From the NCBI GenBank assembly GCA_017431515.1, contig JAFRKV010000044.1:62001-126000 (forward strand): 64,000 bases of DNA, written 5' to 3'. Under the pieces are notes generated by a model. The model had not been told where the DNA came from, made no database searches, and was given only the letters and a program-made list of their open reading frames with translations. Both the position numbers and the translations under genes were made by a program. Numbering within the stretch: position 1 is the first letter of the stretch; the number at the start of each line of letters is the position of its first letter. Shown here piece by piece: positions 3,685-35,409 of the stretch. This DNA is from Lachnospiraceae bacterium (lineage in GTDB: Bacteria; Bacillota; Clostridia; Lachnospirales; Lachnospiraceae).

Positions 3685-3825
3685 TGTTAAGGGGAAAAGT
3701 GCCATGCGTGGAACACGCATGTGCACTTTTCGTGAAGAGGCGCTCTGGCATGCTAGCATGCCGAGGCGCCTTTCCACGCAAAGGTCACAATGTCACTTCG
3801 TGACATGTGACTTTTCCCCTTAACA
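3685..3825. repeat. Three-hairpin palindromic repeat, copy A
   Basis: This 141-bp element is bounded by perfect 16-bp inverted arms (TGTTAAGGGGAAAAGT at 3685-3700, complement at 3810-3825). Inside are three hairpins: arm CATGCGTG with loop GAA (3695-3730); a central palindrome GGCATGCTAGCATGCC (3747-3762) enclosed by AGGCGC/GCGCCT; and GTCACAATGTCA with loop CTTCG (3784-3810). It has no coding capacity. It shares core sequence with copies at 32653-32701 and 34272-34410. Confidence 0.85.
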
Positions 3826-31468: not shown

Positions 31469-31641
31469 ACCTTTTTCCTATTTTGTCTCCTTTTATTTTT
31501 CATTTTCCGTATCTTATACGCTGATCCCTTGATTTTCCGGCACATTCGTCATTATGCCATTTGCGAAGTTTCTGTTTCATTTAATTATTCTTTTCGACCC
31601 TTTTTGTGTCATATCGTTCCTTTTTCACCTGTTTTTCCTGT

Positions 31642-31848
31642 TATACATAATATGTATTATATGCTCACTATAGCGCTCATGCTTTACATGTTTTTTCTTC
31701 TTATTATGTCATCTATAACCTATATATCTTGTATATTCTCTATATCCCCTATATTCTCTATATCCCCTATATTCTCTATATCTCCTATACCCTCTATGCT
31801 TTCTGTGATTCCCATGTTTTCCATGTCATTTCTGCACTCCATATGGCG
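31642..31848. repeat. 9-bp phased array, block 1
   Basis: Cutting the sequence every 9 bp from 31642 gives 23 consecutive units, 20 of which begin with TAT or CAT. The middle is an 18-bp tandem (TATATTCTCTATATCCCC at 31732 and 31750, one change at 31768), itself two 9-bp units. Phase is kept for over 200 bp while the other six positions vary, so only the spacing and the leading triplet appear conserved. Confidence 0.85.
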
Positions 31849-31932
31849 AAGCGCCGCTGGTTGCACTGTTTTCGGCCGGTCAGGGCTCCCTTTCTTTTTC
31901 CCTGTGTTCCCGGCCTCGCTACCGCAGCTCCC

Positions 31933-31978
31933 CGCCTATCCCAGGCTTCTATGCGTGATCTTCCGCCTGCGATAGGCG
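31933..31978. repeat. Long hairpin in the GC-rich island of the array
   Basis: CGCCTATCCCAGGC (31933-31946) pairs with GCCTGCGATAGGCG (31965-31978) with one mismatch, around an 18-nt loop. The hairpin sits in about 130 bp of GC-rich sequence separating array blocks 1 and 2. It lacks a T tract, so it is not an ordinary terminator. Confidence 0.65.
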
Positions 31979-31986
31979 ATATACAA

Positions 31987-32166
31987 TATGAGATATGCGA
32001 TGCATAATCTATATAAGTTTATTATATATTTTATTCTCTATATGTTTCTTATTCTTTTTATCCGTATTATATCAATTAATTTCCTTATGTTCCTTATATC
32101 GAGTATGCATCATATCCCTTTTGTTTTCAATATGCATCTCATACTTTATGCGTTCTCTATACAAAA
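31987..32166. repeat. 9-bp phased array, block 2
   Basis: Twenty 9-bp units in unbroken phase from 31987. Fourteen start with TAT or CAT and the rest with TAA, TGC or TGT (for example TATGTTCCT at 32086, TATATCGAG at 32095). Spacing matches block 1. Confidence 0.78.
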
Positions 32167-32392
32167 GCAGTCATAAGTCTTTCCTGGGACTCCACGGGAT
32201 CAACGGAGCCATTTTGCTGAAGCCTTTTCATAAAGCGGTATCAGATGCGCTGTTTTATACATTCTATACTACATATACAAATCCTGAATTTTCAAGCACT
32301 TCGTAGATCCTGTTTCCTAAATAGATGTTAGGAATGGATCTCTTTACGCACAAAAACGCTTCCTCTAAAAATGGAGCCAGTCCTTAATAATG

Positions 32393-32645
32393 CATATCAT
32401 TCATATGAAACATATCGCTCATATCAAACATACTATGATGGTAATAGCATATGATACATAAATAATATATGTGCCATATTATGTATTTGCTTCTTATTCA
32501 TTATACACTGCTTAAAATACATTCTCATTATAATCCTTTTATCTGTAGTAGGAAATATAAAATGCACACTATTTTTATACATTCTATGTTTTTTATATAT
32601 CATTTGACTTCTATGCAATTCATGTATTATATATAATGTATGTCT
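32393..32645. repeat. 9-bp phased array, block 3
   Basis: Five near-identical units begin at 32393 (CATATCATT, CATATGAAA, CATATCGCT and so on). After a single-base slip near 32447, about 22 more diverged units continue in phase to 32645, roughly 110 bp before parA. Most carry TAT or CAT within the first four positions. Confidence 0.8.
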
Positions 32646-32652
32646 CATCGAG

Positions 32653-32701
32653 CAATTCTTCGTGCAAAGGTCACAATGCCGCAAGCGGCTTGTGAGAATT
32701 G
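32653..32701. repeat. Palindromic repeat, copy C (single hairpin)
   Basis: Outer arms CAATTCT/AGAATTG enclose GCAAAGG and a nested hairpin TCACAA-T-GCCGC-AA-GCGGC-TTGTGA. It shares the 15-mer GCAAAGGTCACAATG (32664-32678) with copy A and, inverted, with copy B. It lies between the array and the parA ribosome site. Confidence 0.7.
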
Positions 32702-32754
32702 GCGAATGAATCAATGAAAATGAATAAAAACAGAAATGAAGGAGTAACAGCCGC

Positions 32755-33507
32755 ATGAAAACAATCATGATTTCAAACCAGAAGGGCGGCGTCGGCAAGA
32801 CTACGACTACCTTGGAGATCTGCAGCATCCTCGGAAAAAAATACAAAGTGCTGGGCATTGATATGGATGCGCAGCGTAATTTTTCCATGTACGCAGATGC
32901 GGAGCTGAATCAGGTTCCGACGGTAAACGAAGTCCTGAACGCGGAAATCCTCTTAAAAGATGCCGTACAGCATCTTCCGAAATTTGATATTCTGATCTCC
33001 AGCAAAAAGCTCGTCGATGCACCGAAGGTGTTCGGGGAACCGGATGACATCTTTCTCTTAAAGGATGTTCTGGAGGATGCCCAGGATTATGATTTCGTGA
33101 TTCTGGATAATGCACCGGCTCGTAGTCCTTTGCTCTATATGAGTTATATCGCCAGCGACTACATCATCCCGGTTGCGGAATGCGACGACGGTGCCATCGA
33201 AGGATTAAACGAGATCCAGCTGGATATCGCCCGGTTCAAAAAACGCCATCAGACAGATGTCAAAGTGCTCGGCATTCTCCTGACGAAGTATGAGAAAACC
33301 AGTATGCACCAGATGGCCTATGAAACCTTGGAGGAAATCGGCGAAAAACTTGGCGGAGCGCCCTTTAAGACAAAGATTCGAAAGTCCATTGTCGTCAGCG
33401 AGTCAAAAACCGCCAGACAGTCCATCAGTGAATATCAGCCGCAGAATACCGCGGCAAAAGACTATACCAAGTTATGCAAAGAGATCATTGAGAGGATCCA
33501 GGGGTAA
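32755..33507 (+). CDS. parA: ParA-type partition ATPase
   Basis: This 250-residue ATPase has the deviant Walker A NQKGGVGKTTT (8-18) with both lysines, a Walker A' region IDMDAQRNFS (about 35-44), and Walker B FVILDNAP (about 114-121). The lack of an N-terminal helix-turn-helix makes it a short ParA like those of type Ib plasmid systems or Soj. In such systems it binds DNA non-specifically as an ATP dimer and positions cargo bound by a centromere protein. AAGGAG lies 10 nt before the ATG. The next gene begins 5 nt after the stop. Confidence 0.88.
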   Translation: MKTIMISNQKGGVGKTTTTLEICSILGKKYKVLGIDMDAQRNFSMYADAELNQVPTVNEVLNAEILLKDAVQHLPKFDILISSKKLVDAPKVFGEPDDIFLLKDVLEDAQDYDFVILDNAPARSPLLYMSYIASDYIIPVAECDDGAIEGLNEIQLDIARFKKRHQTDVKVLGILLTKYEKTSMHQMAYETLEEIGEKLGGAPFKTKIRKSIVVSESKTARQSISEYQPQNTAAKDYTKLCKEIIERIQG

Positions 33508-33512
33508 AGAAG

Positions 33513-34250
33513 ATGAGTACAAAACGGGACAGATTAAAAAAGATGCGGGATGAGCACAAAACCCTTATGAACGAGGAAACCCCCGCAGAGGAATATATCG
33601 AGGCCGCGGCAAGCTACCATAAAGAAACTGCCGCAGCAGCCAAACGCGAACGCGTTGTCGAGGCTGCGCCGGAGTTGCCGCAGGAGCCTTTGGCATCGGC
33701 TCAACAGGAGCCTGCGCCATCGGCTCAGCAGCGTCCTGCTGCATCTGAAATGCGTTCTGTCGCGCCAGAGACACGCCGGATATCAGAACAGCCTGTGTCC
33801 GCGCCAGCCCCCATGCCCTATTCGCCGGTGGAGGCTTCCCCAAAGCAGGAGGAAGTACGCCCGGCGCGTAATGTGCCGTATACGGTTGCGAATGAGCCGG
33901 GAAAACGGATTTCAGTCTCCCTTCGCACGGAAAACAAAAACTGGATGCATCGTACCGCCCTCAGATGCGGCCTCTCCATCCAGGATTACATGAACATCCT
34001 GATCGAAGAAGCCTGGCAGCGGGAACAGAGCGCCCCGTATCTCTGGAATGAGGATGAACCGATTCCGGAGCGCATCCCCTCCAGCAAGACGATCCTTGTC
34101 GCAATCAAGCTTACCAACGTCAACATTGAAAGAAGCCAGCGCATGCGCGCAGCCCGCTGCATGACCATGACCTATTACATGAACTACCTGATCGAGGAAG
34201 AGATCAAACGGGAACAGCTGCAGGGCATGCGGAGAGCGATCTTTGATTAA
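33513..34250 (+). CDS. Putative centromere-binding protein with two ribbon-helix-helix domains
   Basis: A 245-residue protein of no family I recognise. Residues 1-50 are charged, starting MSTKRDRLKKMRDE; residues 51-115 are rich in Pro, Ala and Gln with a short repeat (SAQQEPAP/SAQQRPAA) and probably flexible. Two similar C-terminal domains follow: RISVSLR...SIQDYMNILIEEA (132-167) and TILVAIKL...TYYMNYLIEEEI (193-231). Each has one strand and two helices, as in MetJ/Arc-like DNA-binding folds. Its place directly after parA suggests it binds the upstream 9-bp array and contacts ParA through its basic N-terminus. Confidence 0.75.
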   Translation: MSTKRDRLKKMRDEHKTLMNEETPAEEYIEAAASYHKETAAAAKRERVVEAAPELPQEPLASAQQEPAPSAQQRPAASEMRSVAPETRRISEQPVSAPAPMPYSPVEASPKQEEVRPARNVPYTVANEPGKRISVSLRTENKNWMHRTALRCGLSIQDYMNILIEEAWQREQSAPYLWNEDEPIPERIPSSKTILVAIKLTNVNIERSQRMRAARCMTMTYYMNYLIEEEIKREQLQGMRRAIFD

Positions 34251-34271
34251 AAAGCCGGGATAGATGTGAAT

Positions 34272-34410
34272 AAGGATTTGAAAAGTCACATGTCACGAAG
34301 TGACATTGTGACCTTTGCGTAAAGAACCGCCCTGACATGCTAGCATGTCGAGGCGGTTCCTTGCGCAAAGTGCACATGCGATTTCATCGCATGGCACTTT
34401 TCAAATCCTT
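34272..34410. repeat. Three-hairpin palindromic repeat, copy B (inverted relative to A)
   Basis: Perfect 15-bp outer arms (AAGGATTTGAAAAGT at 34272-34286, complement at 34396-34410) enclose the same three hairpins as copy A in reverse order. They are GTCACATGTCA-CGAAG-TGACATTGTGAC, the central GACATGCTAGCATGTC palindrome, and GCACATGCGA-TTTCA-TCGCATGGC. The outer six or so bases differ from copy A yet still pair. It starts 21 nt after the tandem RHH gene stop and may also terminate that operon. Confidence 0.85.
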
Positions 34411-34411
34411 T

Positions 34412-34438
34412 TATACATTCTATACTTTTTATACTCTC
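34412..34438. repeat. Three 9-bp units downstream of the partition operon
   Basis: TATACATTC, TATACTTTT and TATACTCTC follow each other exactly, matching TATACATTC/TATACTACA at 32256-32273 in the main array. They overlap the 3' end of the recombinase-like gene. Confidence 0.65.
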
Positions 34439-35409
34439 CGCTTCCCGCCGCCTGTTACCTCTGATAGCGGCTTCACGCGAATATTCGTGTAATCGACGGC
34501 TGCCACGTACAGCTCCGGCACGATTTTGTCAAATCTTCGCATCCATTCCGGCGCGATGCCGATATAGCGCGCCACTTCACCCGTGGATGCCCCGCAGACC
34601 AGCATATAGGCAGCAGACCCGTTACGGATATCGCTTAAGGTGTAATGGGGTGTATCCTCCGCCGGCAGGTATTTCAGGTATAACCGTTCCAGATCCCGGA
34701 TCCGCAGCGGATTCCCGCGCTTGTTGTGAAACAGATACGCGGAGTGGGACACCGTCATATCACCGATATATTCCTGAATCAGGGTCAGAATGTCCTCCGG
34801 AATCTTGATATAACGCTTCACATTGCGATAACAGTACTCAATCCCCACATTTCCGTTGCTGTCCTGGATAAAATCCTCATATTTCAGCGTGCAGATCTCT
34901 CCCGCCGATAATCCGCATCTGATCATGATGCTGAGGATCAGATACAACGTATGGTTCCCTTCCGCTTTATGAAGAATCTCATTTAATTCATCGATGTCCG
35001 GCACATTCCTGGCGGTCAGATAATCATCCATTTCCGGCAGAGAGACTCTCTGAAACGGGTTGCTGGTATAGGACTGCTGCAGTTCGAAAAGATAGGAGTT
35101 GCGCAGCAGAAAATTCGATACGGAATTCATCCTCGCCAGCTTCACTTTGATCGTCTTGATCGACTGCTTTCCGTTGGCCGAAAGCATCAGCAAGTGGTTA
35201 AAATAAGACTGGGCGTCCGCATCGGTGAAGGAAAGAAAATCCTTTTTTAAATAGCCGGAAATATCCCTTAAAATCGCGAAGTAATCGGATTTTGACTTCG
35301 CTGTATTGAGGGATTTCGCGAACATCGGCCAGATTTCATTTTCAAATAAGGGAGATAAATAATTTTCCATCGCCAAACAATTCGACTCCATATTCAATAG
35401 AACAGCCAC
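34429..35409 (-). CDS. Tyrosine-recombinase-like protein lacking most catalytic residues
   Basis: This 326-residue protein has a helical core-binding domain (about 22-105) and a catalytic-fold domain (about 135-300) like XerC/XerD. Box I reads CGLSAGEICTL, where the catalytic Arg is Ser168. The HxxR box reads SDIRN, with Ser259 for His and Arg262 kept. LGH becomes IGI at 283-285, and the expected nucleophile position falls at Phe293/Asp294 with no Tyr. It probably binds DNA without cutting it. It converges on the partition operon. A GTG start at 35409 is used; ATGs 6 and 13 codons later are possible, and no site is strong. Confidence 0.72.
   Translation of the reverse strand: MAVLLNMESNCLAMENYLSPLFENEIWPMFAKSLNTAKSKSDYFAILRDISGYLKKDFLSFTDADAQSYFNHLLMLSANGKQSIKTIKVKLARMNSVSNFLLRNSYLFELQQSYTSNPFQRVSLPEMDDYLTARNVPDIDELNEILHKAEGNHTLYLILSIMIRCGLSAGEICTLKYEDFIQDSNGNVGIEYCYRNVKRYIKIPEDILTLIQEYIGDMTVSHSAYLFHNKRGNPLRIRDLERLYLKYLPAEDTPHYTLSDIRNGSAAYMLVCGASTGEVARYIGIAPEWMRRFDKIVPELYVAAVDYTNIRVKPLSEVTGGGKRRV

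What the first reader, a model, noticed from the sequence alone, without database searches (positions are those of the whole stretch)
32755..34250. Plasmid-style ParA plus a tandem ribbon-helix-helix partner on a chromosome
Seen: a short ParA without HTH is followed 5 nt later by a 245-residue protein with a basic N-terminus, a Pro/Ala/Gln-rich linker and two RHH-like domains in one chain. Known: type Ib partition uses ParA with dimeric single-RHH proteins; Firmicutes chromosomes normally use Soj/Spo0J, whose Spo0J has an HTH. The neighbours (por operon, mgtE, pur, trp) are chromosomal. Inference: either a domesticated plasmid partition system or a separate DNA-positioning system. Joining two RHH domains in one chain would remove the need to dimerise.
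Basis: partly seen in the sequence, partly recalled or inferred. Interest (0 to 1): 0.85.

Follow-up and report, generated by a model that had tools for sequence, protein, structure and literature searches.

The report
Chromosomal ParA with double DNA-binding partner
A bacterium of the family Lachnospiraceae keeps on its main chromosome a DNA-partition gene pair of plasmid type, whose DNA-binding protein carries two ribbon-helix-helix-like domains in one chain instead of one, and selection has kept it nearly unchanged, so it probably still positions DNA.

Summary
A 250-aa ParA (32755-33507) and, 5 nt on, a 245-aa protein (33513-34250) with a basic N-terminus, a Pro/Ala/Gln-rich linker and two tandem ribbon-helix-helix (RHH) units. 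Both units align with known RHH sequences in register, better than every shuffle. No structure model could be run. The ParA groups, with support 1.0, with ParAs of Lachnospiraceae plasmids whose partners have one RHH. The nearest pair outside the genus (G149) sits beside a Rep_3 replication initiator. Here it lies on the main chromosome: the contig carries ffh, rnc, der, rimM, plsX, truA, GC skew keeps one sign, and a soj/spo0J pair is elsewhere. A related species has the pair at the same place; ParA is 97.6% and the RHH part 95% identical despite near-saturated synonymous sites, the linker 41%. So: a plasmid-type partition cassette, domesticated and selected, with a covalent RHH pair; a new variant of a known kind. 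Its centromere and role are inferred. Single-chain RHH pairs are known (TraY, DndE). Alongside: a catalytically degenerate tyrosine recombinase, and a 121-bp four-way-junction repeat in about 40 copies, probably unrelated.

The parts
32755..33507 (+). parA: 250-aa ParA/MinD-type ATPase (KGGVGKTT Walker A), no HTH, in a clade with plasmid ParAs
33513..34250 (+). partner gene, 245 aa: basic tail, linker, two RHH units; proposed centromere-binding protein
33513..33572 (+). codons 1-20, basic tail (MSTKRDRLKKMRDEHKT...), conserved in part in G001 and G149; proposed ParA-stimulating tail (inferred from ParG)
   Evidence: function inferred from PMC7308502 (passages)
33573..33887 (+). codons 21-125, Pro/Ala/Gln/Glu-rich linker, 41% identical in G001
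33900..34031 (+). RHH unit 1 (residues 130-173, GKRISVSLRTENKNWMHRTALRCGLSIQDYMNILIEEAWQREQS)
34080..34223 (+). RHH unit 2 (residues 190-237, SSKTILVAIKLTNVNIERSQRMRAARCMTMTYYMNYLIEEEIKREQLQ)
31469..32754 (.). AT-rich non-coding leader upstream of parA (35% GC), candidate centromere region; AT-rich leaders also in G001 (30%) and G149 (23.5%)
   Evidence: function inferred
32573..32645 (.). 73-bp block 92% identical to G001, the only stretch of the leader between 31521 and 32734 that blastn aligned; candidate promoter/operator
   Evidence: function inferred
32253..32267 (+). TTTTATACATTCTAT, copy 1 of 3; exact copies occur only at this locus in the held genome
32573..32587 (+). TTTTATACATTCTAT, copy 2
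34409..34423 (+). TTTTATACATTCTAT, copy 3, downstream of the partner gene
34429..35409 (-). neighbour, probably not part of the cassette: tyrosine-recombinase-like protein with degenerate catalytic residues
34281..34401 (.). neighbour, probably not part of the cassette: one copy of a dispersed 121-bp four-way-junction repeat

Best explanation
A partition cassette of the kind carried by Lachnospiraceae plasmids (ParA plus an RHH centromere-binding protein) came to lie on the main chromosome in or before the common ancestor of two species of this genus and was kept. Shown: gene pair, tandem RHH architecture at sequence level, plasmid-type ParA ancestry, chromosomal position, strong purifying selection. 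Inferred: the tandem RHH protein binds repeats in the AT-rich leader of parA (and perhaps the copy at 34409) as centromere and operator; each chain supplies both halves of an RHH pair; its basic N-terminal tail, on a long flexible linker, stimulates ATP hydrolysis by ParA bound to the nucleoid; ParA then tethers or moves this chromosomal region, beside the Soj/Spo0J system that serves the origin.
For: ParA clade support 1.0 with G001, G149, G066, pCY186 and pCY360; pCY partners with one RHH and the same tail-linker-RHH order; Rep_3 initiator beside the pair in G149 and on the contig of the G066 ParA; RHH profile tests; ParG the only PDB hit of the whole profile; selection (ParA dN 0.02 with pS 0.765; RHH part dN 0.040; linker 41% identity); chromosomal markers and one-signed GC skew; same site in G001; AT-rich leader in three genomes, a locus-specific 15-mer in three copies, and TATGTTT as the 7-mer most in excess in the three leaders together (4, 9, 5 found, 0.6, 1.0, 0.75 expected; picked after the fact).
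Against: No structure model. Unit 2 fits the four plasmid RHH partners weakly (probability 20-21%); units searched singly find no RHH chain in the PDB. ParA is 250 aa, longer than ParF (206), and its best PDB hits are larger segregation/Soj-type chains. The 15-mer has no copy with 0 or 1 mismatch at the G001 locus, and in the window's own leader the commonest 6-, 7- and 8-mers do not exceed the 95th percentile of shuffles, so the centromere is not established. The outer face of the unit 2 strand looks less polar than that of unit 1 (own reading), so unit 2 may not read DNA. Only two species show the chromosomal state. Whether G149's contig is plasmid or chromosome is unknown.
Confidence: 0.6

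Rival explanations
1. Anti-plasmid role: the chromosomal copy is kept because its RHH protein and ParA interfere with the partition of incoming related plasmids (incompatibility).
For: Related ParA/RHH cassettes occur on Lachnospiraceae plasmids, and ParA and the RHH part are the frozen parts.
Against: The best plasmid ParAs are only about 35% identical; no plasmid with a similar partner was found by tblastn at E up to 1.
Confidence: 0.12
2. Recruitment role like VirC1/VirC2: ParA and a single-chain RHH protein bring a DNA site to a transfer machine or pole rather than segregate DNA.
For: VirC1 and VirC2 are Par-like (PMC8406263, passage) and VirC2 has an RHH fold (title in its reference list); weak VirC1 Pfam score, under cut-off.
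Against: No transfer genes recognised among the window's ORFs of 150 aa or more (by eye); the rest of the genome was not searched for them.
Confidence: 0.06
3. A relic or autoregulated selfish pair with no use to the cell.
For: Rare: strong matches to the partner profile in 3 of 397 family genomes (a fourth match is a weak fragment with a stop) and, of 391 class genomes, only the own one strongly (two more at E 0.007, partial).
Against: ParA is more conserved than the por genes beside it.
Confidence: 0.1
4. The contig is a chromid, and the cassette is its ordinary partition system.
For: Chromids are known in Butyrivibrio of this family (PMC5716241, PMC6249431: search listing).
Against: ffh, rnc, der, rimM, plsX, truA on the contig, smc by eye, one GC-skew sign over 134.8 kb, no Rep_3 in G000 or G001 (other initiator families not searched).
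Confidence: 0.04
5. Three-gene system: ParA, tandem RHH and the degenerate recombinase work together on DNA.
For: Same convergent order in G001 and a similar order with distant homologues in G066.
Against: In G002 the recombinase stands beside mgtE with another gene, not the pair, at its 3' side; in G003 its two parts lie on two contigs and another gene follows its 3' end. G149 has no such gene recognised beside its pair.
Confidence: 0.08

Closest known systems
Butyrivibrio proteoclasticus plasmids pCY186 and pCY360, ParA plus small RHH-like protein
   Same: ParA clade; partner downstream with N-terminal tail, linker and C-terminal RHH-like unit
   Different: 146 and 167 aa, one RHH; on plasmids; pCY186 has a ParB gene next to it; neither partner has a Pfam match named RHH
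ParF/ParG of plasmid TP228
   Same: RHH centromere-binding protein with flexible N-terminal tail; centromere boxes with AT-rich spacers (PMC7308502, passages); ParG the only PDB hit of the whole profile
   Different: ParG is a dimer of single-RHH chains; ParF is 206 aa; plasmid-borne
delta/omega of pSM19035 (Firmicutes)
   Same: small ParA plus small dimeric ParB-like protein (PMC4498918, start of abstract); that omega is RHH is recalled
   Different: omega is a homodimer; plasmid-borne
SegA/SegB of Sulfolobales
   Same: chromosome-borne ParA plus RHH protein binding sites upstream of its own genes (PMC9178275, PMC12284271, passages)
   Different: archaeal; SegB without sequence likeness to bacterial proteins
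F-plasmid TraY and DndE
   Same: two RHH in one chain (PMC12117103, passage; PMC10853773, passages)
   Different: conjugation and DNA modification; no ParA partner named in the passages seen
VirC1/VirC2
   Same: Par-like ATPase with an RHH partner (PMC8406263, passage and reference title); that VirC2 is a single-chain RHH pair is recalled, not read
   Different: T-DNA transfer
Chromosome-encoded ParMR of Desulfitobacterium
   Same: plasmid-type partition genes with RHH adaptor on a Firmicutes chromosome (PMC12270681, passages)
   Different: actin-type motor, not ParA

Membership tests
ParA/RHH plasmid partition (type Ib-like) | ParA with deviant Walker A and no N-terminal HTH | tested here: met
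ParA/RHH plasmid partition (type Ib-like) | partner gene downstream encodes an RHH protein | tested here: met
   by sequence profiles only; no structure
ParA/RHH plasmid partition (type Ib-like) | one RHH per chain, acting as homodimer | tested here: not met
   two units per chain; oligomer state unknown
ParA/RHH plasmid partition (type Ib-like) | short ParA of ParF size (206 aa, 4dzz) | tested here: not met
   250 aa; ParF aligns only over 105-245
ParA/RHH plasmid partition (type Ib-like) | repeat centromere beside the genes | tested here: inconclusive
   AT-rich leader, 15-mer in three copies in G000 only, k-mer test weak
ParA/RHH plasmid partition (type Ib-like) | N-terminal tail stimulates ParA ATPase | not testable with these tools
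   conserved basic tail only
ParA/RHH plasmid partition (type Ib-like) | carried by a plasmid | tested here: not met
   main chromosome
Soj/Spo0J (chromosomal ParABS) | ParB-type partner with HTH | tested here: not met
   no ParB match in the partner; a Soj-like ParA with a ParB-family protein is on contig C53
VirC1/VirC2 | linked to a DNA-transfer system | tested here: inconclusive
   none seen by eye among window ORFs; rest of genome not searched
SegAB | SegB-family partner | not tested
   no comparison with SegB was made; known as archaeal, whereas the genus here is Lachnospiraceae by the record title of G001's contig
Active tyrosine recombinase (gene 34429-35409) | catalytic R, H, R, H, Y | tested here: not met
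   S, S, R, I, F at these columns; the catalytic Lys column was not aligned reliably

The most novel reading that the evidence does not exclude
A second chromosome-organising system: the single-chain RHH protein (perhaps with the degenerate recombinase) binds not only its leader but the roughly 30-40 dispersed 121-bp four-way-junction elements of these two species, so that ParA gathers or spaces many chromosomal sites.
Probability: 0.05. Interest if true: 0.85.

Novelty: new variant of a known kind. Interest (0 to 1): 0.45.

Why it matters
It gives a selected case of a plasmid-type partition cassette living on a Firmicutes main chromosome beside Soj/Spo0J, and a natural test of whether a centromere-binding RHH protein can work as a covalent pair. 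The comparison of two species, with frozen ParA and RHH parts and a free linker, tells which parts matter.

Tried and rejected
Integrated plasmid or chromid: rejected on chromosomal markers, GC skew and lack of Rep_3. Replication origin at the pair (suggested to me by a change in gene direction): rejected, no change of skew sign. Element as the cassette's parS: not supported. It lies mostly beside ORF 3' ends; related elements occur in G083, which is not among the matches (their lists of genomes without a match are cut, so that G083 was's sample is not shown); and G149 (L036) and G066 (L103) give no model match round their pairs. In favour of a link: within the genus element and pair occur together in 2 of 4 genomes and both are unseen in the other 2, but the two carriers may simply be the closest kin, and G002 and G003 are fragmented. 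Recombinase as third part: see rivals. Searches for the partner that found nothing: plasmids, phages, viral contigs; genome contigs gave only RUG12461 (one protein as query, which reaches close relatives only). ParA as a protein was not searched in G002 and G003; a DNA search with the whole 6.2-kb locus found no parA there. Paper searches run; none of the listed titles or starts of abstracts describes ParA with a tandem-RHH partner on a bacterial chromosome, and that is all I can say about print; the VirC2 paper is not held.

Full report
What is there. The window holds a 250-aa ParA at 32755-33507 and, after 5 nt, a 245-aa protein at 33513-34250, both on the + strand. ParA matches AAA_31 and CbiA and keeps KGGVGKTT. 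The partner has no family match above cut-off in Pfam, NCBIfam or PHROGs.

Is the partner a tandem RHH protein? The two C-terminal units were taken from three species (window, G001 = RUG12461, G149) and compared as profiles: probability 95.4%, 0 of 150 column shuffles as good. Against four plasmid partners unit 1 gave 72-81% and unit 2 20-21%, each with 0 of 150 shuffles as good. Against six RHH sequences (those four, the G162 partner, ParG) they gave 95% and 87%, 0 of 100 each, in register. Two of the four plasmid partners have Pfam matches named RHH, weak and under the cut-offs; ParG is called RHH in print (PMC7308502, passages). The whole profile finds only ParG in the PDB sequences, at E 0.5; the isolated units find no RHH chain, only chance hits. 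So the tandem RHH is well supported by sequence and unproved by structure, because the prediction queue never opened.

Ancestry. In a tree of 37 ParAs collected here (the 30 loci, which are E <= 1e-30 matches in 30 of 200 family genomes; G001; two other ParAs of the own genome; four chosen plasmids), the window ParA groups with support 1.0 with G001, G149, G066 and the plasmids pCY186 and pCY360, apart from the Soj ParAs and from those beside a ComFB-like gene. Inside that clade the order of G066 and the pCY plasmids is not resolved (0.357). The pCY partners are 146 and 167 aa with one RHH-like unit. G149, of another genus, has the same two-unit architecture, 70% identical ParA, and a Rep_3 initiator gene 1.8 kb away. 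G066 has a more distant ParA, a partner that looks RHH-like by eye (no Pfam RHH match) and a recombinase-like gene on a contig with Rep_3 and genes that look like conjugation genes by eye. The pair is rare: strong matches to the partner profile in 3 of 397 family genomes (G406 has E 8.7e-4 over a fragment with a stop); of 391 genomes of the class only the own one matches strongly.

Place. The contig of 134,816 bases carries ffh, rnc, der, rimM, plsX and truA and, by eye, smc; GC skew is negative in every 5-kb step. So this is the main chromosome, on one arm. A Soj-like ParA with a ParB-family protein lies on contig C53, and a third ParA with a ParB-like gene stands next to a lysyl-tRNA-synthetase-like gene on C11 (by eye). 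The genome is 81.8% complete in 62 contigs, so the distance to oriC is unknown.

Selection. In G001 the pair is at the same site between cobO and the recombinase-mgtE pair. ParA is 97.6% identical with synonymous differences saturated (pS 0.765), the highest protein identity of the 12 genes that gave an orthologue there; the RHH part is 95.0% identical over 120 codons (dN 0.040), the linker 41.2% over 102 codons. The pair was thus probably there in the common ancestor and has been kept. In G002 the recombinase and mgtE are together and another gene stands where the pair would be; in G003 the recombinase is split over two contigs and another gene follows its 3' end; gain in one line or loss in the other cannot be told.

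Candidate centromere. The leader (31469-32754) is 35% GC, against 50-57% in most of the window; the G001 and G149 leaders are 30% and 23.5%. Between G000 and G001 blastn aligned only 73 bp of it next to parA (92%). TTTTATACATTCTAT occurs exactly three times in the held genome, all at this locus (32253, 32573, 34409); two more places have one mismatch; in G001 no copy with up to one mismatch lies at the locus. The commonest k-mers exceeded the shuffles in G149 and in part in G001, not in the window's genome; TATGTTT is the 7-mer most in excess in all three together. This is a pointer, not a demonstration.

How it probably works. By analogy with ParG, whose tails stimulate ParF and whose RHH binds centromere and operator (PMC7308502, passages), the basic tail of the partner would stimulate ParA, the linker gives reach, and the covalent RHH pair binds DNA. 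A whole RHH dimer fold in one chain is known for TraY (PMC12117103, passage), and two tandem RHH for DndE (PMC10853773, passages). ParA plus RHH on a chromosome is known for SegAB, and plasmid-type ParMR on Firmicutes chromosomes (PMC12270681, passages). So each piece has a precedent; the combination on a bacterial main chromosome is what seems new here.

Neighbours. The recombinase-like gene (34429-35409) has S, S, R, I, F where active enzymes have R, H, R, H, Y; of 17 relatives aligned, 0 keep either His, 2 keep the first Arg, 16 the second and 14 the Tyr (several are only about 25% identical); it is still under selection (dN/dS 0.05). The 121-bp element at 34281-34401 folds as a four-way junction (z -12.7 for 34245-34430). 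On 33 copies 27 of 56 pairs show changes on both sides and 97.8% of cells pair, 0 of 500 shuffles as good (the structure was derived from the same alignment, and the shuffles do not keep relatedness). After merging strands and split hits I count 40 places in this genome (which scored 40 of 71 candidates) and 29 in G001. Of 33 distinct copies 27 could be placed between two ORFs, and 25 of these have the 3' end of a neighbouring ORF on at least one side, 12 on both (my merging of the 29 rows; by orientation alone about three in four and one in four would be expected, and some distances are several hundred bases). No Rfam family. I take it for a separate, perhaps terminator-like repeat.

Noticed in passing
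window 34281-34401 and 3695-3815 (-); about 40 places in the genome; L039-L068: Dispersed 121-bp element folding as an outer stem with three hairpins; outer hairpins nearly invariant, central hairpin and flanking stem vary with compensatory changes; mostly next to ORF 3' ends; also in G001, where the copy between partner and recombinase gene is turned round; unseen in G002 and G003. No Rfam match.
   Followed up: partly
L108 and L110 (G083, another genus): Elements of the same four-way-junction layout but different hairpin sequences.
   Followed up: partly
window 34429-35409 (-), and L035, L078-L081, L083-L089, L091-L093, L098, L103: Tyrosine-recombinase-like proteins in Lachnospiraceae with lost catalytic residues, yet conserved; in the window genus even Tyr is Phe.
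   Followed up: partly
window 32646-32734: Stretch of the parA leader without a counterpart in G001 that holds a fragment matching the 121-bp element.
   Followed up: no
L012-L014, L016, L019-L026, L028-L030, L033: 16 ParA genes followed by a protein with a C-terminal domain that I recall as ComFB-like (label not tested); 13 of 16 start with a stretch like NKTxHVLNLL, the others (L016, L023, L024) with one like EIDKEMMYRKIMP; in L020 a FliD-like gene follows, by eye. Of the papers searched, two hold the words ComFB, ParA and flagell, neither in title or abstract.
   Followed up: no
L007-L011, L015: A clade of ParAs with no partner gene of 90 aa or more recognised next to them; shorter partners were not looked for.
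   Followed up: no
L003 (contig C11 of the window's genome): Third ParA with a ParB-like gene beside a lysyl-tRNA-synthetase-like gene, perhaps a mobile element.
   Followed up: no
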